64,000 nucleotides of DNA from Sphingopyxis alaskensis RB2256. Its GTDB lineage: Bacteria > Pseudomonadota > Alphaproteobacteria > Sphingomonadales > Sphingomonadaceae. The translations under genes were made by a program, and so were the position numbers. The notes below the pieces were generated by a model. It made no database searches and was not told the origin of the DNA. It saw nothing but the letters and a program-made list of their open reading frames with translations. Positions 36,709 to 63,306 of the stretch are shown here, one piece after another. Location of the stretch: NCBI RefSeq assembly GCF_000013985.1, contig NC_008048.1:2294001-2358000 (forward strand). The letters are read 5' to 3'. Position 1 is the first letter of the stretch. Each line of letters begins with the position of its first letter.

Positions 36709-37629
36709 ATGACGCACCGCACCCTCGCCATGACCGGCGCAACCGGCTTTGTCGGCGGCGCGACGCTGCACCGCGCCGTCGAGGCGGGCTGGCACGTCCG
36801 CGCGCTGACACGCCGCCCGCAGGGCGAACGCGAGGGCGTAACCTGGATCGCCGGCGCGCTCGACAAGCCCGACAGCCTCGCCGACATGGTGGCGGGGGCC
36901 GATGTCGTCATGCACATCGCGGGCGTCGTCAATGTCCCGACCCGCGCCGCCTTCGAGGCGGGCAATGCGACCGCAACCGCCAATGTGATCGCCGCCGCAC
37001 GCGATGCCCATATATCGCGCTTCGTCCACGTCTCCTCGCTCGCGGCGCGCGAGCCAGGCCTTTCCGACTATGGCTGGTCGAAGGAGCGCGCCGAGGCCGT
37101 CGTGCAGGCGAGCGGGCTCGACTGGACGATCGTGCGCCCGCCTGCGGTGTTCGGCCCCGGCGATACCGAGATGCTCGACCTGTTCCGCATGGTTCGCCGG
37201 GGCGTCGCCCTCCTGCCACCGCCGGGCCGCATGTCGGCGATCTATGTCGACGACCTTGCCCGCCTGCTCGTTGTGCTCGCAGCCGACAAGGGGACGAGTT
37301 TCGGCCGGATCTATGAGCCCGACGACGGCACCCCCGGCGGCTGGTCGCACCGCGGCTTTGCCCGCGCGATCGGGCGGGCGGTCGGCCGCGCCCATGTGCC
37401 GACGCTCGCCGCGCCGGCGCTGCTGCTCAAGGTCGGCGGGCGGATCGACCGGTTCATCCGCCGCGACCGCGCCAAGCTGACCCCCGACCGTGCGCGCTAT
37501 ATCGTGCATCCCGACTGGGTGGTGGCCGATGGCGCCCGTCCGCCCGCCACAATCTGGCGCCCGGAGCGCGAGACCGACGAGGCGCTCGCCGAAACGGCGC
37601 GCTGGTATCGCCGCGAAGGCTGGCTCTGA
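36709..37629 (+). CDS. NAD(P)-dependent epimerase/dehydratase-family protein
   Basis: From ATG 36709 the 306-residue protein begins RTLAMTGATGFVGGATLHRA, the nucleotide-binding GxxGxxG loop of extended short-chain dehydrogenases. It continues with MHIAGVVNVPTRAAFEAGNA, FVHVSSLAAREPGLSDYGWS and the active-site region YGWSKERAE (Y-x3-K). Substrate is unknown; nearest subgroups include sugar-nucleotide epimerases and NDUFA9-like proteins. Upstream residues of the longer frame fall in the repeat and are not used. Confidence 0.88.
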   Translation: MTHRTLAMTGATGFVGGATLHRAVEAGWHVRALTRRPQGEREGVTWIAGALDKPDSLADMVAGADVVMHIAGVVNVPTRAAFEAGNATATANVIAAARDAHISRFVHVSSLAAREPGLSDYGWSKERAEAVVQASGLDWTIVRPPAVFGPGDTEMLDLFRMVRRGVALLPPPGRMSAIYVDDLARLLVVLAADKGTSFGRIYEPDDGTPGGWSHRGFARAIGRAVGRAHVPTLAAPALLLKVGGRIDRFIRRDRAKLTPDRARYIVHPDWVVADGARPPATIWRPERETDEALAETARWYRREGWL

Positions 37630-54127: not shown

Positions 54128-55672
54128 ATGAGCGACGACGCCGACCATTCTGCCGTCACCAGCCGCAGCGTCGCGCGCGGGCTCGGCACGACGGTCCTCG
54201 CGCGCCTCGGCGCGGTGGTCGAGATCGTCGCGCAGCCGCTCTATGTGCTGATGTTCGGGCTTGCGGGTTACGGCCTTTACGCCGTGCTGTGGGCGGCGGT
54301 GAACCTCATCGAAAATATCTTCGACCTCGGCATGACCAGCGCGATGCAGCGCACCGTCCCGCAATCGGCAAGCGATGTCGAGGCGGCGGCGGCGCTGCGC
54401 ACCGCGATGATCTTCGGCGTCGGCCCCTGCATCCTTGTCGCTGCGCTGATTACCCTGTTCGCCGCCGAGCTGGGGCCGCTTCTCAACGTCGCGGCAAAGG
54501 ACCGCCCGCTCGTCATCCCGGCGATCCGGATTTTCGTCTGGGCGCTGCCGCTCTGGGCGTTCGTCGAAATCGCGACCTCGGCGCTGCGCGCGCGGATGGT
54601 GTTCGGCGCCGAAATCCGGCTGCGGATCGTGTGGGAGCAATTGCTGCGCCTCGTCTTCGCGGGCCTGTTCTTTGCGGGCGGCTTCGGCCTCAAGGGCCTG
54701 TTCATCGCGCATCTCTGCTCGCTGGCGATCACCGCCGCGCTGTCGGTCCGCCTGCTTGCGCGGCAATATAGCTTTGCCGATCTTTGGCGCGGTCCGTGGG
54801 ACGGTCAGACGTCGCGCGACACTTTCTGGGCGGGGCTGTCGATCCTTCCCTCGAATGTCATCACGCGGCTGTTCGGCGACGCGCCCGCGCTGGTCCTCAA
54901 CATGCTGCTCCCCGGCGCGGCGGGGGCCGCGGCGGCGGGCCTCTTCACCATTGCGCGCAAGCTGTCGAGCGTGGTGCAGCTTGTGCGCATCGCCTTCACC
55001 TATGTCATGGCGCCACTCGCCGCGAGCGCCGAGCGTCGCGACCGGCGACAGGTTGCCGACATCTATGCCTATGCGACGCGGCTGATCGCGGCGATCGCGC
55101 TGCCGCTCGCCGCCGTGCTCGCCGCCGGCAGCGCCTCGCTGCTCAGCCTGTTCGGCGATCAGGCGCAGGCGGCGCAGGCGGCGCTGGTCATCCTGCTTTT
55201 CGCGCGCGCGGTCGAGGCGGTGCTCGGCATCTCCGCGCCGGTGTTGCAGGTCGTCGCCGCCTTTCGCCACCAGCTCACCGCCAGCATCATCGGGGTTGCC
55301 GTCGCCGTCGCCGCCGGATGGCTGATGGTCGGCCATATCGATCCGCTGACCGGCGTGACGCTGGCGACGGCGATCGGGCTGGTCGTGATGGCCGCAATCC
55401 CGACGCTGCAACTCGCCGTGGTCGAGCGGCTCCATCCCTTCGATGCGCAATTCCCCGCGGTCGCGCTGCGCGGGATCGGCGTCACGATCGTCGCCGGGCT
55501 TGCCGCGATGCTCGCCGACCTGCTCCCCGACCCGGTCGCGCTGCCCTTGCTGCTCATCATCGCCGCGGCGGCGATCTGGCTGGCGCTGCGCTTTGCGCTG
55601 CCGCTCGCCGATCGCGCCTCGCTCGGCAAGACGGCGCGCCGCCTCCGCCTGATCGGACCCGCCGACCGATGA
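54128..55672 (+). CDS. Polysaccharide/lipid-linked flippase (MOP superfamily, Wzx-like)
   Basis: From ATG 54128 the 514-residue protein has about 12-14 hydrophobic segments, beginning ARGLGTTVLARLGAVVEIVA and QPLYVLMFGLAGYGLYAVLW, in the order typical of Wzx/oligosaccharide exporters. It would flip a lipid-linked or lipid head-group product across the inner membrane. Its TGA overlaps the next ATG (ATGA), and the following four genes are equally packed, which places it in one biosynthetic operon. Cargo is unknown. Confidence 0.88.
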   Translation: MSDDADHSAVTSRSVARGLGTTVLARLGAVVEIVAQPLYVLMFGLAGYGLYAVLWAAVNLIENIFDLGMTSAMQRTVPQSASDVEAAAALRTAMIFGVGPCILVAALITLFAAELGPLLNVAAKDRPLVIPAIRIFVWALPLWAFVEIATSALRARMVFGAEIRLRIVWEQLLRLVFAGLFFAGGFGLKGLFIAHLCSLAITAALSVRLLARQYSFADLWRGPWDGQTSRDTFWAGLSILPSNVITRLFGDAPALVLNMLLPGAAGAAAAGLFTIARKLSSVVQLVRIAFTYVMAPLAASAERRDRRQVADIYAYATRLIAAIALPLAAVLAAGSASLLSLFGDQAQAAQAALVILLFARAVEAVLGISAPVLQVVAAFRHQLTASIIGVAVAVAAGWLMVGHIDPLTGVTLATAIGLVVMAAIPTLQLAVVERLHPFDAQFPAVALRGIGVTIVAGLAAMLADLLPDPVALPLLLIIAAAAIWLALRFALPLADRASLGKTARRLRLIGPADR

Positions 55673-56379
55673 CCGACACCCCGCCCCGCGTCGCCGTCTA
55701 TGACCTCGACCGCACCGTGCTGCGCACCCCGACCTTCACGCTGTTCCTGCTGTGGGCGGCGTGGCGCGACGCACCGTGGCGGCTGCTGCTGCTCCCGGCG
55801 CTGGCGGCGCTGATGATCGGCCATGCGCTCGGCCTCTATGGCCGCGACCGGTTCAAGCCCGCGGCGATCCGGCTGATGCTCGGCGCCAGCATCGCGCCGA
55901 CGCGCGCCCGGCGGCTCGCCGTGCGGTTCGCCGCGTGGCGCGTGCCGCGCGACGTGCCGCCGGGCGCCGCCGCCTGCATCGCGCGCGACCGCGCCGAAGG
56001 CTTCCGGCTGCTGATGGCGACCGCGGCGCCCGAGTTTTACGCGGGCGCAATCGCCGACGCGCTCGGTTTCGATGCCATTGTCGCCTCGCGCCATCGCCGC
56101 GACGCGGACGGCAACTGGCTGCCGGCGCTCGACGGCTCCAATTGCTATGGCGCCGAAAAGGCGCGGCGCGTCGCCGAATGGCTCGCCGCCAACGGCGCCG
56201 GGAACGCGCATATCCGCGCCTATTCGGATCATGTCAGCGACGCGCCGACCTTTGCGCTGGCGCGCGAGGCGTGGCTCGTCGGGCGTAGCGCCAAGGTTGT
56301 GCGGCTTGCCGCCCAACATGGCTGGCAGGTCGCCGATTTCGAGGATGCCGCCGCAGGGGCGTCAACGGAGGTTCGTTGA
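55669..56379 (+). CDS. HAD-superfamily phosphatase (subfamily IB-like)
   Basis: The 236-residue protein begins VAVYDLDRTVLRTPTFTLFL, the nucleophile DxDxT motif, continues with a hydrophobic cap-like segment (LLLLPALAALMIGHALGLYG), MATAAPEFYAGAIADALGFD (second motif) and SDHVSDAPTFALA (acidic third motif). It resembles SerB-like and lipid head-group phosphatases. It lies between the flippase and the CDP-glycerol-transferase-like gene with overlaps on both sides, suggesting dephosphorylation of a cluster intermediate. Confidence 0.88.
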   Translation: MTDTPPRVAVYDLDRTVLRTPTFTLFLLWAAWRDAPWRLLLLPALAALMIGHALGLYGRDRFKPAAIRLMLGASIAPTRARRLAVRFAAWRVPRDVPPGAAACIARDRAEGFRLLMATAAPEFYAGAIADALGFDAIVASRHRRDADGNWLPALDGSNCYGAEKARRVAEWLAANGAGNAHIRAYSDHVSDAPTFALAREAWLVGRSAKVVRLAAQHGWQVADFEDAAAGASTEVR

Positions 56380-57518
56380 TGCGCATCCTCTTCCTCTTCA
56401 TCGGCGAGCCGCACCACCTGTTCCACGCGCTGCCCATCGCCGCCGAAATGGCCGCGAAGGGTCAGCCCGTCGAGGTCGCGGTGGCAAGCGCCGATCATCT
56501 GCCCGTCGCGCAGCAGGTCATGCTCGCCTATCCGGGCTTTGCGCCGCAAATCACGCTGCTCGGGCAAAAGGGCCTCGCGCGCTGGCTGCGCGCGCGCGGC
56601 CTGTTCCGCAATCCGCGCCTGCCGATCCTGCTCGACGCGCTGCCCTTCCTCCGCCGGTTCGACGCGATCGTCGTCCCCGAACGGACGACGACCAGCATCC
56701 GTCATTTCCTGCCGCGCCGGACGCGCCTCATCTTCACGCCGCACGGCGCGGGCGACCGTGCGATCACCTTCGACGCGCGCGACCGCCGTTTCGATTTCGC
56801 ACTCGTCGCGGGCGAAAAGAGCGAGGCACGGATGATCGAGGCCGGGACGATCCGCCCCGGCCATTATGCGGTCACCGGCTATGTGAAGCTCGACCTGATG
56901 CGCCGCCTGCAAAAGTCGCGCGCGCCGATTTTCGACAATGACCGACCGACGATCCTCTATGCCCCGCATTTCCGGCGCGACCTGTCGTCGTGGGACCGGT
57001 TCGGGCGCGGAATCATCGACTGGGTCGCGGCGCAGGACCGCTACAACCTGATCGTCGCTCCGCACGTCCGCCTGTTCGCCGAAGCGAGCGACGCCGAACG
57101 GGCCGAAGTCGAACGCCGCGCCATTCCGGGCAAAATCCTTGTCGACCTGGGCTCCGAACGCCTGTTCGACATGAGTTATACCAGCGGCGCCGACCTCTAT
57201 CTCGGCGATGTCAGCAGCCAGGTGTATGAGTTTCTGGCGAAGCCTCGACCGTGTGTCTTCCTCAACGCGCATCGGGTCGACTGGGTCGGCGATCCCGACT
57301 ATCTCTTCTGGACGCTTGGCGATGTCGTCGATGACCTCGCCGACCTGCCCGCCGCGCTCGACGCCGCCCCCGGCCGCCATCCGCTCTATGCCGATGCCCA
57401 GCGCGCGCGCCTCGCCGAATCGATCGGCGGCGATCCCGCAGGCGCGGCGGCGCGCGGCGCCGAGGCGATCCTGCACTTTCTTGCAAAGGACGCCGGGCAG
57501 GATAAGAGCGGCGGATGA
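56379..57518 (+). CDS. CDP-glycerol glycerophosphotransferase-like (TagB/TagF family) protein
   Basis: From ATG 56379 the 379-residue protein matches the core of this family: RLIFTPHGAGDRAITF (equivalent of HGxPxK), RPTILYAPHFRRDLSSWDRF and MSYTSGADLYLGDVSSQVYE (equivalent of DYSSVYFDF). In Gram-positive bacteria such enzymes build teichoic acid from CDP-glycerol. A strong GGAGG (56367) sets the start. Its neighbours (CDP-alcohol phosphotransferase, two nucleotidyltransferases) supply activated alcohols. Substrate is inferred, not shown. Confidence 0.8.
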   Translation: MRILFLFIGEPHHLFHALPIAAEMAAKGQPVEVAVASADHLPVAQQVMLAYPGFAPQITLLGQKGLARWLRARGLFRNPRLPILLDALPFLRRFDAIVVPERTTTSIRHFLPRRTRLIFTPHGAGDRAITFDARDRRFDFALVAGEKSEARMIEAGTIRPGHYAVTGYVKLDLMRRLQKSRAPIFDNDRPTILYAPHFRRDLSSWDRFGRGIIDWVAAQDRYNLIVAPHVRLFAEASDAERAEVERRAIPGKILVDLGSERLFDMSYTSGADLYLGDVSSQVYEFLAKPRPCVFLNAHRVDWVGDPDYLFWTLGDVVDDLADLPAALDAAPGRHPLYADAQRARLAESIGGDPAGAAARGAEAILHFLAKDAGQDKSGG

Positions 57519-58618
57519 CCGACGCCAAACCCCTCCCCGCGCTGACGCCGATCGGCGACAATCCCACCCTCATCTGGGGCATGACCAACGCCGAGCGCCT
57601 GCGGCGGCTGGCGCGCGCCGAGGGACTGCCCGACACGCCGGGCGCATCGGGCGCGCGGCTTTACGTCAATCTGGCCTATGTCTTCGATCCCGTGTGGTTG
57701 CGCCACGTCGTCGCGCTGCCCGGCACGGTGGTGATGGACGGCGATGCGCTGGTGATGGCGCATCTGGTCGGCGGCATGACGCCGGACGATATTGCGGCCA
57801 ACCGCAGCACGCTGTCGATCATCGACTATCAGGGCAATCCGCAAATCTATAACCGCCAGCTGCGCAAGCTCGACTGCCCCTTCATTCAGCCGCTGACCCG
57901 CGAAACGCGGCGCGCGATCGAGCGGAAGAGCTATTTCGGCGCCTATAAGGGCGTGACCGACGCGCTGACCAAATATCTCTGGCCCGAACTTGCGCTATGG
58001 CTGACGCGCGGTGCGGCGAGCATCGGCATGACGCCGAACATGGTGACGGCGATCGGCGCGGCGCTGTGCATCTATGCGACCTGGCTCTTTGCGCAGGGCC
58101 AGTATTGGGAGGGGATGCTCGCGGGCTTCATCTTCATGGTGCTCGACACCGTCGATGGAAAGCTCGCGCGCTGCACGATCACTTCGTCGAAATGGGGCAA
58201 TGTCGCCGACCATGGCGTCGACCTCATTCACCCGCCCTTCTGGTGGTATTTCTGGGGCGTCGGGCTCGGCGCCTGGGGTCTCGCGCTGCCCGATCAGACC
58301 TTCCTGCTGGTGATGATTGCTGTGGTCGCGGGCTATGTGCTCCAGCGCGTGATCGAGGGGTTGTTCATCAAGGATTTCGGCATGGACATCCATGTCTGGC
58401 GCCGGTTCGACAGCCAGTTCCGCCTGATCACCGCGCGGCGCAATCCCAATTTCGCAATCCTGTTCTTCGCGACGCTCGCCGGACGCCCCGACATCGGGCT
58501 GATCGCGGTGGCGTGGTGGACGGTCATCTCGCTGGTCGTCCATGCGGTGCAGTTGGTGCAAGCCTATGCAGAGCGGCGCGCTGGGCGCCCTATTGTCAGC
58601 TGGATGGAGGAAGCATGA
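57515..58618 (+). CDS. CDP-alcohol phosphotransferase with N-terminal nucleotidyltransferase-like domain
   Basis: The 367-residue protein has an extra N-terminal soluble domain (about 1-130) and a membrane CDP-alcohol phosphatidyltransferase domain. The family motif is complete: D211-x2-D214-G-x2-A218-R219-x8-G228-x3-D232-x3-D236, within DTVDGKLARC and WGNVADHGVD. Four acids bind the metals. The N-terminal domain recalls the degenerate cytidylyltransferase-like domain of archaeal AF2299 and of inositol phospholipid enzymes. It would join a phospho-alcohol from its CDP derivative to a lipid. Overlaps neighbours at both ends. Confidence 0.9.
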   Translation: MTDAKPLPALTPIGDNPTLIWGMTNAERLRRLARAEGLPDTPGASGARLYVNLAYVFDPVWLRHVVALPGTVVMDGDALVMAHLVGGMTPDDIAANRSTLSIIDYQGNPQIYNRQLRKLDCPFIQPLTRETRRAIERKSYFGAYKGVTDALTKYLWPELALWLTRGAASIGMTPNMVTAIGAALCIYATWLFAQGQYWEGMLAGFIFMVLDTVDGKLARCTITSSKWGNVADHGVDLIHPPFWWYFWGVGLGAWGLALPDQTFLLVMIAVVAGYVLQRVIEGLFIKDFGMDIHVWRRFDSQFRLITARRNPNFAILFFATLAGRPDIGLIAVAWWTVISLVVHAVQLVQAYAERRAGRPIVSWMEEA

Positions 58619-59043
58619 ACGAAACCATCGCAAAGTTCGGCCACCCGGCGACGCTGATCGCCGACTATGCGCATTGGGTCGTGCTGCTTCGCCCCGCGCA
58701 GCCGACGCTCGGCGCGCTGGTGCTCGCGGCGAAATCGGACGCCACGGCGTTCGGCGACCTGCCCGCCGCGGCTCACGCCGAGCTCAAGACCGTCACCGCC
58801 GCCATCGAGGCGGCGCTGAGGCAGGCCGTCGGCTATGCCAAGATCAATTATCTGATGCTGATGATGGTCGACCCCCACGTCCATTTCCACGTCCTGCCGC
58901 GCTATGATGGCGAGCGCAGCGGCGCCGGGATAACGGTCGCCGATGCCGGCTGGCCGGGGCAGCCCGATCTGGGGCAGGCGGTAAAGCTCGACGAAAGCCA
59001 GATCGCCGCGCTCACCGGCTGGCTCAAACCCTATTTCGCGTAG
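58615..59043 (+). CDS. HIT-family protein
   Basis: The 142-residue protein contains the histidine triad in PHVHFHVLPRYDGE and an AP4A-phosphorylase-like first half (AHWVVLLRPAQPTLGALVLA). HIT enzymes hydrolyse or transfer nucleotidyl groups, so a role with the CDP-linked intermediates of the cluster is plausible. Its ATG overlaps the stop of the CDP-alcohol transferase gene. The last 13 bases overlap the convergent nucleotidyltransferase. Confidence 0.92.
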   Translation: MNETIAKFGHPATLIADYAHWVVLLRPAQPTLGALVLAAKSDATAFGDLPAAAHAELKTVTAAIEAALRQAVGYAKINYLMLMMVDPHVHFHVLPRYDGERSGAGITVADAGWPGQPDLGQAVKLDESQIAALTGWLKPYFA

Positions 59044-59795
59044 CGGCCTTCGGCCACCCATTTGGCGGTGAGCGCCTCGGCGGCCTCGACATCCTGCGGA
59101 AAGTCGACTTCCTGCCATTCGAGCCCCTCGATCGACACGGTGCCGACGCGGTTGCCCTTGGCGATGACGTCGATCGCGCGCAGATACCAGCGCTCGACCC
59201 CGTCGGGGGTGCGCATCATCTGGTCGACCTGGTTGCGGAAGATCGACGGGCCGTCGCCGGTGAAGGCGAGCATCCCGATCGATTCGGCATTGGTATCGGG
59301 GGGCAGCAGCCGCTTGCCGATCTGGTGGAGCCGCCCCTCGGCGTCGCGGTTCACCTTCATATCGTCGTCGTCATAATCGGCTTTGACATCGACGGTGACG
59401 GTGATCGGCTCCTTCACCCCGTCGATCAGTCGCGCGACGATCTCGTCCGAAACGATGGTGTCGCCGTTCAAAATGATGAAATCGCGGTCCATTTCCTCGC
59501 GCGCGATCCAGCAGGTGCCCAGATTGTCGGCGACCTGAAAGAAGGGATTGAACAGCGTGCGGATGCGCGCGCCCGTGTCGCGATAGAGTTGCAGCGCATG
59601 ATCCTCGACGCGTTCGGTGCGGAACCCCGTGACGACGACGATGTCCCTGATCCCGTTCGCGACGAGCGCCGCGACCTGCCAGCTGATGAGGCTGCGGCCC
59701 CCCAGTTCGATCAGACATTTGGGAATGTCGCGCGTCAACGGCAACAGACGCGATCCCTGTCCGGCCGACAGGATGATGGCTTTGGAAATGGTCAT
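59031..59795 (-). CDS. Sugar/alcohol-phosphate nucleotidyltransferase
   Basis: From ATG 59795 the 254-residue protein has the NTP-transferase signature ILSAGQGSRLLPLTRDIPKC, ILNGDTIV (metal acid), and later VDVKADYDDDDMKV. It resembles phosphocholine or inositol-phosphate cytidylyltransferases more than classic RmlA in size. It would make a nucleotide-activated donor, possibly CDP-linked, for the transferases opposite. It is the last gene of a three-gene minus-strand run with ATGA overlaps, convergent with the HIT gene. Confidence 0.9.
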   Translation of the reverse strand: MTISKAIILSAGQGSRLLPLTRDIPKCLIELGGRSLISWQVAALVANGIRDIVVVTGFRTERVEDHALQLYRDTGARIRTLFNPFFQVADNLGTCWIAREEMDRDFIILNGDTIVSDEIVARLIDGVKEPITVTVDVKADYDDDDMKVNRDAEGRLHQIGKRLLPPDTNAESIGMLAFTGDGPSIFRNQVDQMMRTPDGVERWYLRAIDVIAKGNRVGTVSIEGLEWQEVDFPQDVEAAEALTAKWVAEGRYAK

Positions 59796-60586
59796 AGGCG
59801 CCGCCCTATAGCCGCTTCGCCCCGCGCGGCAAATATCGCTTCGATCAGCGCGATGTCGGCGGGCTTGTCGGCGTCGATGCACGCCACGGGGTCGCTCATC
59901 GGCACCACTTTCGCCGCAAGGCCAAAGCGCCGCCCCGCGCGCGCCACCCCTTGCTGGATGGTGAACAGGCGCAGCAGCGCGCCGATGAGCAGCCACGGGC
60001 CGAAAGCCGCGATAATCTTCAGCCCCTTTTTGCGGTCACGCTCGATCCGCCCCCAGAAATCGAGCAATGGCAGGACGCGCTGCCCGCGCAGCCGAAACAG
60101 GTTCGCCCCCGACCACCAGCCGCCCCGGAACTTCAGCCAGGTCCGCCGCGATTCGGGATAGTGCGCCAGCAGCACGTCACGCTCGACCATCGCGACTGCG
60201 ACGTCGCTGTCCACCGCGCCGCGCAGGAACTCGGCGATCATCGCCGGGGTGAGCAGCACATTGTCGGCGGTGGTCACGAGCAGCGGATCGTCGCCCGGCG
60301 GCAATGCGGCGGCGAGCGAGCTGCTGATCCCCTCCCCCGATGTGGCAAAATGCAGGTCGGCGATGCCCGCAAGGCCCGGTTCGGCGGCGAGCGCTGCGCT
60401 GTCCTGCGCCAATATGGTGATCGCCCCTACCTCTGGCGCGGCGCGCAGCGCGGTCACGACATGGATCAGCATCGGCTGCCCCGCGACGGGGAGCAGCGCC
60501 TTGGTGGGCACCCCGCTGCCCGCCAGCAGCGGGTCGGCGCCGGGACGGCTGCCCGCGAGGACGATCGCCGCTATCGGGCCGGTCAT
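59792..60586 (-). CDS. MobA-like nucleotidyltransferase
   Basis: The 264-residue protein starts IAAIVLAGSRPGADPLLAG and PTKALLPVAGQPMLIHVVTA, the MobA/IspD-like NTP transferase loop, with LLVTTADNVLLTPAMI as the metal-binding TADN site. It also has a hydrophobic C-terminal half (FGPWLLIGALLRLFTIQQGV). A second nucleotidyltransferase gene follows with a four-base overlap. The two may act on successive substrates or one may be a regulatory partner. Confidence 0.87.
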   Translation of the reverse strand: MTGPIAAIVLAGSRPGADPLLAGSGVPTKALLPVAGQPMLIHVVTALRAAPEVGAITILAQDSAALAAEPGLAGIADLHFATSGEGISSSLAAALPPGDDPLLVTTADNVLLTPAMIAEFLRGAVDSDVAVAMVERDVLLAHYPESRRTWLKFRGGWWSGANLFRLRGQRVLPLLDFWGRIERDRKKGLKIIAAFGPWLLIGALLRLFTIQQGVARAGRRFGLAAKVVPMSDPVACIDADKPADIALIEAIFAARGEAAIGRRL

Positions 60587-61536
60587 CGCTCTGCGTCCAC
60601 CGGCGCGATGCGGCGCGCGGTGACACCGCGAAGGAAATCGCTCGCTTCGTCGAGCACCGGCCCGCGGTTGCGAAAGGGCGCGGCGAGCGCCATGACGATC
60701 CCGGTGTGGCCGACGCCGGGATAGATGCGCAGCGTCGCCGACCCGCCCGCGCGCTCGATCGCGGCGGCGAGGTTCTGGCTGTTGCGCGGGCGCACCACAT
60801 CATCCTCGTCGCCGCTCGCAAGCCAAAGCGGCGGCGCGTCGCCGCGCGCGAAATGGATCGGCTGCGTCCGCTCGATCGGCCGAACCTTGCCCATCGCCTT
60901 GTCGGCGCGGCCGCCCTTTTCGAGCGGCAGGAAGTCATAAGGCCCGGCAAGGCCCGCGACGCCGCGGACGATCGACGGATCGCTTTTCGCGGCGCGCAAC
61001 CATTGCGGGTCGAGCGCGAGCATCGCGGCATTATAGGCGCCCGCCGAATGCCCCATCAGCGCGATCCGGTCGGGATCGCCGCCGAGCTTCGCGATATGCT
61101 CATGCGTCCACGCGACCGCCGCGGCGCTGTCTTCCAGAAAATCGGGCCAATGCGCCTTCGGCACCAGCCGGTAATCGGGGATCACGACGACAAAGCCCTG
61201 CCGCGCGAGCGCGCGTCCCGCGAAACCATAATGGCCGCGCTCGCCGCTGTTCCAGCCGCCGCCATAGAAAAAGACCACGACGGGCAGCCGGTCGCCTTCG
61301 CGCAGGCTGCCCGGCACCCAGATGTCGAGCGACTGGCGCGGCCCGCGGCCATAGGGCTGGTCGGCGATCAGCAGCCGCGCGCCATCGCCCTGCCCCAGCA
61401 GCCGGTCGGCCAGGTTGAGCGATTTCGCGCCGCCCGCGGCGATCATCCTGGCGCCGCCGCCGAACAGCAGCACGAGCAGCAGCAGCACGAAGAGGATCTT
61501 GATCAATCGCCGTCCCTTGCAAAGCCGCGCCGCCAT
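60583..61536 (-). CDS. Membrane-anchored alpha/beta hydrolase (esterase-like)
   Basis: From ATG 61536 the 317-residue protein has an N-terminal hydrophobic anchor (IKILFVLLLLVLLFGGG), the oxyanion strand VVVFFYGGGWNSGERGHYGF, the nucleophile elbow IALMGHSAGAYNAAMLAL, and a terminal histidine in YPGVGHTGIV. This is the hormone-sensitive-lipase-like/BD-FAE esterase plan. It heads the minus-strand operon with the two nucleotidyltransferases. The much longer open frame upstream is not real. Confidence 0.88.
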   Translation of the reverse strand: MAARLCKGRRLIKILFVLLLLVLLFGGGARMIAAGGAKSLNLADRLLGQGDGARLLIADQPYGRGPRQSLDIWVPGSLREGDRLPVVVFFYGGGWNSGERGHYGFAGRALARQGFVVVIPDYRLVPKAHWPDFLEDSAAAVAWTHEHIAKLGGDPDRIALMGHSAGAYNAAMLALDPQWLRAAKSDPSIVRGVAGLAGPYDFLPLEKGGRADKAMGKVRPIERTQPIHFARGDAPPLWLASGDEDDVVRPRNSQNLAAAIERAGGSATLRIYPGVGHTGIVMALAAPFRNRGPVLDEASDFLRGVTARRIAPVDAER

Positions 61537-61630: not shown

Positions 61631-62461
61631 ATGACCTGCCCCTTTTCCCGCCCCGCCCTTGTCTGCAACAGCCACAGCGGCAGCCACGACGAGGCCGTCC
61701 TCGAAGCGATCGGGGCGGTCTGCCGCGAACAGGGCGCGCCGCTCGCCGCGACCTTTGCGCTGCCCGATGACGCGATTCCCGACGCCGCCGAACTGGCCCG
61801 GCAGCAGATCGACCTCCTGATCGTCTGGACCGGCGACGGCACGATCAACGCGGCGGCAGGCGGTGCGGCGGGGTGGGACGGCGCGATCCTGCCGCTGCCC
61901 GGCGGCACGCTCAACCTCCTGTCGAAGGCGCTCCACGGCGACCGCGACGCGCCCGACATATTGGCGGACGTGCTGCGGGGCAAAGGCCACCGACGCCCGG
62001 TGCCGATGCTCCGTTCAAAAGACGGCGATGCCTTCATCACCATCGTCGCCGGCCCCGCGACGCGCTGGGCCGAAGTGCGCGAAACGATGCGGCAGGACGG
62101 GCTGATCGAGGCGAGCCGCGCGGCGCCCGAGGCGCTCGACGCGATGATGAACGCGCCCGGCGTGCGCGTCGCGGGTCAGGACCGCGACTGGCCCGCGATC
62201 ATCCTGACCCCCACCCCGCACGGCATCCGCGCCGACGGCATCGTCGCCGAAGGCTCCGCCGATGTGCTCCGCCACGGCCTCGCCTGGCTCGGCGGCGATT
62301 TTCGCGACGGGCCGAGCGAGCACGTCGCGACCGGCGACACGATCATCCTCGAAAGCGACGCGCCGATCAGCCTCGAATATGACGGCGAACTCAAGGAAAC
62401 GGAATCGCCCGCGCGCTTCGCGCTCGGCACGAGCACGGTCGATTTCATCGCGACGGCATGA
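61631..62461 (+). CDS. Diacylglycerol kinase-family lipid kinase
   Basis: The 276-residue protein has the catalytic-loop motif LLIVWTGDGTINAAAGG and the following LPLPGGTLNLLSKALHGD. The family phosphorylates diacylglycerol, sphingosine or ceramide, or undecaprenol. In Caulobacter a member of this family acts as a ceramide kinase; sphingomonads make sphingolipids, so such a substrate is possible here. It overlaps the next gene (ATGA). Divergent from the hydrolase. Confidence 0.88.
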   Translation: MTCPFSRPALVCNSHSGSHDEAVLEAIGAVCREQGAPLAATFALPDDAIPDAAELARQQIDLLIVWTGDGTINAAAGGAAGWDGAILPLPGGTLNLLSKALHGDRDAPDILADVLRGKGHRRPVPMLRSKDGDAFITIVAGPATRWAEVRETMRQDGLIEASRAAPEALDAMMNAPGVRVAGQDRDWPAIILTPTPHGIRADGIVAEGSADVLRHGLAWLGGDFRDGPSEHVATGDTIILESDAPISLEYDGELKETESPARFALGTSTVDFIATA

Positions 62462-63306
62462 CACGGCTCTTTCATATCAGCGACCTGCATTTCGGGCTCG
62501 AAGACCCGGCGGCGCTCGACTGGTTTACCGACTGCGTCCGCGCCGAGCGCCCCGACGCGGTCCTCATCACCGGCGACCTCACGATGCGCGCGCGCGCGCA
62601 TGAGTTTGCCGCAGCGTGCGACTGGATCGAAACGCTCGACGTGCCCGTGACGGTCGAGGTCGGCAACCACGACCTGCCCTATTTCAATCCGGTCGCGCGC
62701 TTCTTTCATCCCTATCGCCGTATCCGCCGCATCGAACGGCTCGTCGAGCGCGAAATCGACCTGCCCGGCCTGGCGATCGTGTCGCTCAAGACCACCGCGC
62801 GCGCGCAGTGGCGGCTCGACTGGTCGAAAGGATGGGTGACCGACAAGGCGCTCGCCCGCACGCTCGCCGCGATCGACGCGCTGCCCCCCGGCGCCATGCC
62901 ACTCGTCACCGCGCATCATCCGCTGGTCGAGGCGGGCACGAAAGGCCGCGCGCTGACCCGCGGCGGCGAGCGCGCGCTGGCGGCCTTGGCAAAGCGCGGC
63001 GTCGCGGCGGTGCTGACCGGCCACGTCCATGATGCTTTCGACCTGGTGAAACAGACCGCGGGCGGGCCGATCCGCATGATCGGCGCCGGGACGCTGTCGC
63101 AGCGCATCCGTTCGACCCCGCCCAGCTTCAACGACCTGCTGGTCAGGGGCCGCGCGCTGTCGGTGCGCGTGCGCAATCTGGCCGACGTGCCGACCCCCGA
63201 CATGCAGATTACCGACATCCCGGCCGACGCGCTGCCGCCGCGCGATCCCGGCGAACCCGTCGCGCCCGTCCACGCCGTCCCGCCCGTCGATCCGCCGGTG
63301 CATTGA
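62458..63306 (+). CDS. Metallophosphoesterase (calcineurin-like)
   Basis: The 282-residue protein shows the five phosphoesterase blocks in order: FHISDLHFG, LITGDLTMRARAHEF, VEVGNHDLPYF, LVTAHHPLVE and VLTGHVHDAFD. These bind a two-metal centre. Possible substrates are cyclic nucleotides, lipid-A-precursor-like nucleotides or phospholipids; none can be chosen by eye. The C-terminal 40 residues are Pro-rich. It overlaps the DAGK-family gene by four bases, so the two are coupled. Confidence 0.93.
   Translation: MTRLFHISDLHFGLEDPAALDWFTDCVRAERPDAVLITGDLTMRARAHEFAAACDWIETLDVPVTVEVGNHDLPYFNPVARFFHPYRRIRRIERLVEREIDLPGLAIVSLKTTARAQWRLDWSKGWVTDKALARTLAAIDALPPGAMPLVTAHHPLVEAGTKGRALTRGGERALAALAKRGVAAVLTGHVHDAFDLVKQTAGGPIRMIGAGTLSQRIRSTPPSFNDLLVRGRALSVRVRNLADVPTPDMQITDIPADALPPRDPGEPVAPVHAVPPVDPPVH

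What the first reader, a model, noticed from the sequence alone, without database searches (positions are those of the whole stretch)
54128..61536. Compact cluster for a CDP-alcohol-based phosphodiester head group or polymer
Eight adjacent genes encode a flippase, HAD phosphatase, CDP-glycerol-transferase-like enzyme, CDP-alcohol phosphotransferase, HIT protein, two nucleotidyltransferases and an anchored esterase, nearly all overlapping by a few bases. Together they could activate an alcohol phosphate with CTP, attach it to a lipid, extend or trim it, and export it. Sphingomonads replace LPS with glycosphingolipids, so an anionic, phosphodiester-bearing envelope lipid or teichoic-like glycan is plausible. 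I know of no described sphingomonad pathway with this exact set.
Basis: inference. Interest (0 to 1): 0.78.

Follow-up and report, generated by a model that had tools for sequence, protein, structure and literature searches.

The report
Sphingolipid phosphoglycerate head-group module
A bacterium of the sphingomonad group carries a compact, strain-variable gene set that very probably adds charged phosphoglycerate units to its ceramide membrane lipids, and part of it looks like an exchangeable cassette that could give related strains different surface lipids.

Summary
They are not a wholly unknown pathway. The phosphotransferase and nucleotidyltransferase 1 are orthologs of Caulobacter CpgA (42-44%, only match in each direction) and CpgD (51-53%), which act in turning ceramide phosphoglycerate (CPG) into ceramide diphosphoglycerate (CPG2). 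CpgD is a CTP:phosphoglycerate cytidylyltransferase; 11 of 12 active-site positions taken from two papers are kept. HIT, nucleotidyltransferase 2 and the TagF-like gene also have homologs in the Caulobacter cluster. Ceramide, cpgB and cpgC homologs lie about 60 kb away. cpgA and cpgD come and go together (17 of 25 same-genus genomes have both, 8 neither). New here: (i) the HAD gene seems to stand in for the Caulobacter phosphoesterase CC_1158; (ii) the TagF-like slot plus the first 130 codons of cpgA behave as one exchanged cassette (up to 98% identity in the catalytic domain with 43% in the N-domain), sometimes with glycosyltransferases in the slot. Verdict: new variant of a known kind. The lipid itself is undetermined.

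The parts
54128..55672 (+). Flippase (Polysacc_synt/Wzx-like); frame gene of the locus, kept in most genomes without cpgA
   Evidence: Pfam PF01943 5e-8; no tblastn hit to the Caulobacter cluster at 1e-3; present at the site in 6 of 8 cpgA-less genomes
55669..56379 (+). HAD-IB phosphatase; proposed functional stand-in for Caulobacter CC_1158
   Evidence: PF12710 9e-32; near cpgA in 6 of 22 outside loci (adjacent in 5), in none of the 13 that have a CC_1158-type phosphoesterase
56379..57518 (+). TagF-like (CDP-glycerol glycerophosphotransferase-like) GT-B enzyme, homolog of the Caulobacter gene at the CC_1167 place; variable slot
57515..58618 (+). CpgA ortholog: cytidylyltransferase-fold N-domain + CDP-alcohol phosphotransferase
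56300..57904 (+). Exchanged cassette: slot gene plus first 130 codons of cpgA
   Evidence: Type I-II nucleotide identity is 12-38 points below type I-I in this block and at most 8 points below it elsewhere between 55.6 and 59.0 kb; protein identities
58615..59043 (+). HIT protein, homolog of the Caulobacter gene at the CC_1157 place
   Evidence: 52% over 132 aa; PF01230; HVHFHV motif read directly
59031..59795 (-). CpgD ortholog: CTP:phosphoglycerate cytidylyltransferase
   Evidence: 53% to Caulobacter CpgD, E 2.5e-72; 11 of 12 positions named in two papers identical
59792..60586 (-). Nucleotidyltransferase 2, homolog of CC_1153 (CofC/MobA-like); near-universal in relatives
   Evidence: 40% over 259 aa; 39 of 41 genomes at E 1e-10
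60583..61536 (-). Membrane-anchored alpha/beta esterase; frame gene, not specific to the cpgA module
   Evidence: PF20434 9e-30; at the site in 7 of 8 cpgA-less genomes

Best explanation
This is the sphingomonad form of the phosphoglycerate head-group module of ceramide lipids. Core genes elsewhere in the genome make ceramide, ceramide-1-phosphate (CpgB) and ceramide phosphoglycerate (CpgC). [quoted passage not shown] The HAD enzyme probably removes a phosphate from an intermediate, the kind of job proposed for CC_1158 in Caulobacter; the flippase exports the lipid. The TagF-like enzyme, or the glycosyltransferase found in its place in some sister genomes, probably adds a further strain-specific group. 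Shown elsewhere, in Caulobacter: the CpgD and CpgB reactions and the genetics of CpgA and CpgC. Inferred here: every activity in this organism, and the roles of HAD, TagF-like enzyme, HIT, NT2 and flippase.
For: CpgA: only match in each direction, 1.6e-86 and 3.0e-86. CpgD: best match 2.5e-72, next in that genome 9.4e-8; 11 of 12 positions identical, the 12th (T88 to A) contacts CTP by its backbone in the preprint. Five window genes have homologs at 40-52% in the Caulobacter cluster. Own genome has acpR, spt (53%), cpgC, cpgB, lptF2, lptG2 and cerS homologs at 2279.7-2290.7 kb. cpgA and cpgD both present in 17 of 25 same-genus genomes (own included), both absent in 8. In 22 outside loci cpgA lies near cpgC in 14, cpgB in 13 and spt in 11. 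No MIPS found, with the control ringing in 6 of 14 genomes.
Against: No lipid of this organism is known. Heaver et al. 2022 (PMC9246714, section 10 and passages) saw a phosphohexose-like and a PI-like dihydroceramide in two other sphingomonads. cpgB identity to Caulobacter is low (28%). The TagF-like gene was not found in 4 same-genus genomes with cpgA and cpgD, nor in G025, and is near cpgA in only 3 of 22 outside loci; cpgD is near cpgA in 9 of 22. CC_1157 (HIT) mutants show no high cofitness with the cluster in Caulobacter. G026 has a cpgD-like gene (48%) but no cpgA match.
Confidence: 0.74

Rival explanations
1. An inositol-phosphate or phosphohexose ceramide pathway, like the alternative cluster of Bacteroides vulgatus (nucleotidyltransferase + CDP-alcohol transferase + HAD).
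For: Same three enzyme classes; nucleotidyltransferase 1 resembles IPCT and CpgA resembles PIPS and IPCT-DIPPS; Novosphingobium acidiphilum makes a PI-dihydroceramide-like lipid.
Against: No inositol-1-phosphate synthase found in the genome; closest characterised ortholog is CpgD, with its glycerate-contacting residues kept. Inositol uptake is not excluded.
Confidence: 0.1
2. A teichoic-acid-like polymer on a lipid other than ceramide, built by the TagF-like enzyme from CDP-glycerate or CDP-glycerol.
For: TagF-like family and fold; flippase and CDP-alcohol donor enzyme in the same region.
Against: Neither Pfam nor NCBIfam reports a TagD-type CTP:glycerol-3-phosphate cytidylyltransferase among the 10 window proteins tested (the rest of the genome was not searched for one); cpgA clusters with ceramide genes in other Alphaproteobacteria; the TagF-like gene is missing in 4 same-genus genomes with the rest of the module.
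Confidence: 0.1
3. The mosaic pattern in the cassette is faster divergence of two neighbouring genes rather than exchange of a DNA block.
For: Surface-lipid enzymes can evolve fast; no donor genome was identified; in the GT4b and empty-slot genomes HAD is also diverged (67-70% to type I, against 83% within type I), so the edges are sharp only for the type I/II comparison.
Against: Sharp edges between types I and II; pairs with a 98% identical catalytic domain and a 43% identical N-domain; 193 of 1223 pairs with catalytic identity of 90% or more have N-domain identity under 60% and only 9 lie between 60 and 70%.
Confidence: 0.12

Closest known systems
Caulobacter crescentus ceramide diphosphoglycerate (CPG2) genes CC_1152-CC_1168 (CpgA-D)
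   Same: CpgA and CpgD orthologs, homologs of CC_1153, CC_1157 and CC_1167; same genome carries spt, cpgB and cpgC homologs
   Different: Module is split from the ceramide genes; HAD in place of the CC_1158 phosphoesterase; a flippase without detectable similarity to CC_1166 in tblastn, and an esterase; exchanged TagF-like/cpgA-N cassette
Sphingomonas wittichii orthologs listed by Olea-Ozuna et al. 2024
   Same: Sphingomonad with orthologs of 16 of 17 cluster genes but no CC_1158, scattered over 6 regions
   Different: Its supplementary table was not available here, so gene-by-gene identity with the window arrangement is untested
Bacteroides vulgatus alternative inositol-lipid cluster (Heaver et al. 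2022)
   Same: Nucleotidyltransferase, CDP-alcohol transferase and HAD together
   Different: Lies near MIPS; none was found in the window genome
TagF / Cps3D polyol-phosphate polymerases
   Same: GT-B fold and a weak sequence profile match (Cps3D E 0.0068)
   Different: About 15% identity; substrate unknown

Membership tests
CpgD CTP:phosphoglycerate cytidylyltransferase | Orthology to Caulobacter CpgD | tested here: met
   53%, 2.5e-72, far above the next match in either genome
CpgD CTP:phosphoglycerate cytidylyltransferase | Active-site residues contacting CTP, Mg and glycerate | tested here: met
   11 of 12 named positions identical; T88 to A is a backbone contact
CpgD CTP:phosphoglycerate cytidylyltransferase | CDP-glycerate formation | not testable with these tools
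   needs purified enzyme
CpgA (CPG to CPG2) | Reciprocal best match and CDP-alcohol motif | tested here: met
CPG2 pathway | Ceramide synthesis genes and CpgB/CpgC in the same genome | tested here: met
   spt 8.9e-137, cpgC 8.4e-49, cpgB 5.4e-14; acpR and cerS homologs; aasR was not found in the stretches read, cerR only as a 33% match
CPG2 pathway | CC_1158-type phosphoesterase | tested here: inconclusive
   window gene at 62458-63306 is 26% identical and is kept in 7 of 8 cpgA-less sites, so it is probably not CC_1158; the rest of the genome was not searched; HAD may replace it
CPG2 pathway | CPG2 present in the membrane | not testable with these tools
   needs lipidomics
TagF-type glycerophosphotransferase | PF04464 over its curated cut-off | tested here: not met
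   15.8 against 22.1 bits for the window protein; at E 0.01, 30 of 48 alignment members match
Bacteroides-type inositol-lipid pathway | Inositol-1-phosphate synthase | tested here: not met
   PF01658 no match in G000, control rings in 6 of 14

The most novel reading that the evidence does not exclude
In bacteria whose outer surface is built of sphingolipids, the ceramide head group is a strain-typing, antigen-like trait: a recombination cassette (TagF-like or glycosyltransferase gene plus a matched N-terminal domain of CpgA) is swapped between strains within a fixed frame, as O-antigen and capsule genes are elsewhere. The CpgA N-domain, a dead cytidylyltransferase fold, would act as the partner or acceptor-recognition domain of the slot enzyme.
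Probability: 0.35. Interest if true: 0.8.

Novelty: new variant of a known kind. Interest (0 to 1): 0.58.

Why it matters
CPG2 helps Caulobacter survive without LPS, and several of its enzymes are still unassigned. This locus offers gene-neighbourhood evidence on three of them: HAD as a stand-in for CC_1158, and CC_1157 and CC_1167 as possible pathway members although the 2024 paper set them aside as probably unrelated. If the cassette reading holds, sphingomonads have a serotype-like variation in sphingolipid head groups, which could bear on phage resistance, grazing and surface charge, and can be tested by comparing lipids of strains with different cassettes.

Tried and rejected
Inositol and glycerol readings: see rivals. 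The lipid kinase next door (61631-62461) as the ceramide kinase: rejected, the CpgB match is at 2284.5-2285.4 kb and the neighbour gave no hit to the Caulobacter cluster at 1e-3. The neighbouring metallophosphoesterase (62458-63306) as CC_1158: weak (26%) and retained without cpgA in 7 of 8 genomes. The eight genes as one inherited unit: rejected. The TagF-like gene as an essential CPG2 enzyme: not supported (not found in G001, G009, G010, G022 and G025; G009 is 88% complete in about 550 contigs); Olea-Ozuna et al. also report no CC_1167 ortholog in three beta/gamma-proteobacteria that they predict to make CPG2. Of 12 TagF-like copies read at places without cpgA, 8 have HAD beside them (G003, G004, G007, G013, G015, G017, G019, G027), G026 has a CC_1158-like gene two places away, and G033, G038 and G039 have neither. 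These copies fall in a different half of the gene tree from the module and Caulobacter copies, with low support and long branches, so I do not lean on them. Foldseek proper ('pdb') never ran: the machine was busy; the VIA-align second look was used instead.

HAD and CC_1158-type exclusion: 13 loci with the phosphoesterase, 6 with HAD, 3 with neither, 0 with both, of 22 (p 0.0011). One search checked that all 13 match Caulobacter CC_1158 (31-45%, E 2e-42 or better) far better than the window's own phosphoesterase. Several loci share a genus; by genus I count 9, 4, 3 and 0 of 16, p about 0.02 by hand. One HAD locus (G122) is a 4.3-kb contig, so its missing phosphoesterase says little. At most about 9-10 kb on each side was searched, less where the contig ended.
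Full report
What is there. The window lies at 2294001-2358000 of contig 2 of a 3.37-Mb genome; the nearest named relatives of its proteins are Sphingopyxis, so the host is probably Sphingopyxis. Eight genes fill 54128-61536 in two convergent units whose ends overlap by 13 bases. To the left lies sdhB (named by me from its sequence); to the right a lipid-kinase-like and a metallophosphoesterase gene.

Identification. Reading on Caulobacter phosphosphingolipids (PMC11324152: part 1 of 9, section 9 and passages; PMC12275187: parts 1 and 2 of 4; PMC13228409 preprint: sections 6-8 and passages) suggested a comparison. A 17-base pattern from a published cpgD primer found a Caulobacter vibrioides genome, whose cluster was fetched. 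Window genes against it: TagF-like 40% to the gene at the CC_1167 place, CDP-alcohol transferase 42% to CpgA, HIT 52% to the CC_1157 place, nucleotidyltransferase 1 51% to CpgD, nucleotidyltransferase 2 40% to CC_1153; the metallophosphoesterase 26% to CC_1158; flippase, HAD, esterase and lipid kinase no hit at 1e-3. CC numbers were assigned by me from gene order and the paper's description. CpgA is the only match in each direction. Of 12 CpgD positions named in the two CpgD papers (catalytic R16, K26, D112; CTP, ribose and glycerate contacts), 11 are identical.

Rest of the pathway. The same genome holds homologs of acpR, spt, cpgC, cpgB, lptF2, lptG2 and cerS at 2279.7-2290.7 kb, 57-68 kb from the module, which begins at 2348.1 kb. 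Among 41 genomes (own plus 40 relatives) cpgC matches in 39 (G009 only in part), cpgB in 41 (G037 only a short match at 6.7e-5) and nucleotidyltransferase 2 in 39. cpgA and cpgD are variable: both in 17 of 25 same-genus genomes and neither in 8. Outside the genus, G025, G033 and G039 have both at 39-53%, several genomes have remote matches only, and G026 has only a cpgD-like gene at 48%. In a class sample 20 of 289 genomes, own included, have cpgA at E 1e-20. So most of these sphingomonads should be able to make CPG, and those with this module CPG2 or a variant; this is inference.

HAD and HIT. In 22 outside loci around cpgA (the 19 others from the class sample and 3 from the order), a CC_1158-type phosphoesterase is near cpgA in 13, HAD in 6, both in 0 and neither in 3. 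This suggests one phosphatase replaced by another; Olea-Ozuna et al. noted that S. wittichii lacks CC_1158 and that the CC_1158 mutant is often intermediate in phenotype. HIT is near cpgA in 10 of 22. Against HIT: CC_1157 mutants show no high cofitness. For CC_1167: cofitness 0.57 with spt and 0.54 with CC_1159, and its homolog sits beside flippase and aasR in G217 and G313. Against it: near cpgA in only 3 of 22 loci.

The exchanged cassette. In 17 genomes with the module, the slot between HAD and cpgA holds a TagF-like gene of type I (10, own included), type II at 39-43% identity (3), a glycosyltransferase (3: G001 on the other strand, G022, and a fragment in G009 matched by eye) or nothing (G010). 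Between types I and II, CpgA residues 1-130 are 50% identical on average (80% within type I), residues 131-367 are 93% (92% within), and flippase, HAD, HIT, NT1, NT2 and esterase differ by no more than 2 points downward. Sliding identity over 9 genomes (6 type I, 3 type II) puts the edges at the 3' end of HAD and codon ~130 of cpgA. In the glycosyltransferase genome G022 and the empty-slot genome G010, HAD is diverged as well (67-70%), so the block may be longer there. N-domain alleles and slot types go together: alpha 11 genomes (type I in 10, glycosyltransferase in G001), beta 4 (type II in 3, empty in G010), gamma 2 (G009, G022, similar glycosyltransferase). In 121 CpgA proteins, 193 of 1223 pairs with catalytic identity of 90% or more have N-domain identity under 60%, 9 lie at 60-70% and 1021 at 70% or more; the extreme is 98% against 43%. 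These 121 are the query and its 120 listed best hits, not a random sample.

Genomes without cpgA. At the same site 4 of 8 (G004, G007, G012, G019) hold two genes after the flippase, in G019 a phospholipid-methyltransferase-like gene (PF04191) and a small P-loop-like gene without a Pfam match; the other three were judged by size and place only. G003 holds flippase, nucleotidyltransferase 2 and esterase; G015 flippase and esterase; G013 another flippase, HAD, a TagF-like gene and GT2-like genes; G017 is rearranged. The P-loop and GT2 labels are read by eye.

Limits. No lipid was measured. Gene calls in relatives came from a simple codon-bias script. Literature: the listings of searches (15 of 250 rows shown; 15 of 67 shown) showed no paper on this module in Sphingopyxis or on a role for CC_1167; the library is open-access only, and the original CPG2 paper (Zik et al. 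2022, recalled) was not read.

Noticed in passing
L067:12384-13851 (G019) and same place in G004, G007, G012: In G019 a two-gene cassette (PEMT-like methyltransferase and a P-loop-like protein) lies where HAD-slot-cpgA-HIT-cpgD would be, between flippase and nucleotidyltransferase 2; genes of the same sizes are there in G004, G007 and G012.
   Followed up: partly
L091, L094, L095, L096, L097 (about 4-5 kb from cpgA): A second CpgA-like gene (34-36%) lies between the lptG2 and cerS homologs on the opposite strand to cpgA; it could be the missing transferase for the first phosphoglycerate.
   Followed up: no
L085:8163-14416 (G026): A run flippase-TagF-like-NT2-CC_1158-like-cpgB-cpgC without cpgA, tying these genes to the CPG core.
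   Followed up: partly
window 36721-37626: An epimerase-family gene 33% identical to Caulobacter CerR, a candidate for the ceramide reductase of this genome.
   Followed up: no
window 61631-62461: The lipid-kinase-like gene beside the module is 47-51% identical in G005, G006, G014 and G016 but 71-97% in the other 11 relatives whose locus shows it, another sign of exchange at this locus.
   Followed up: no
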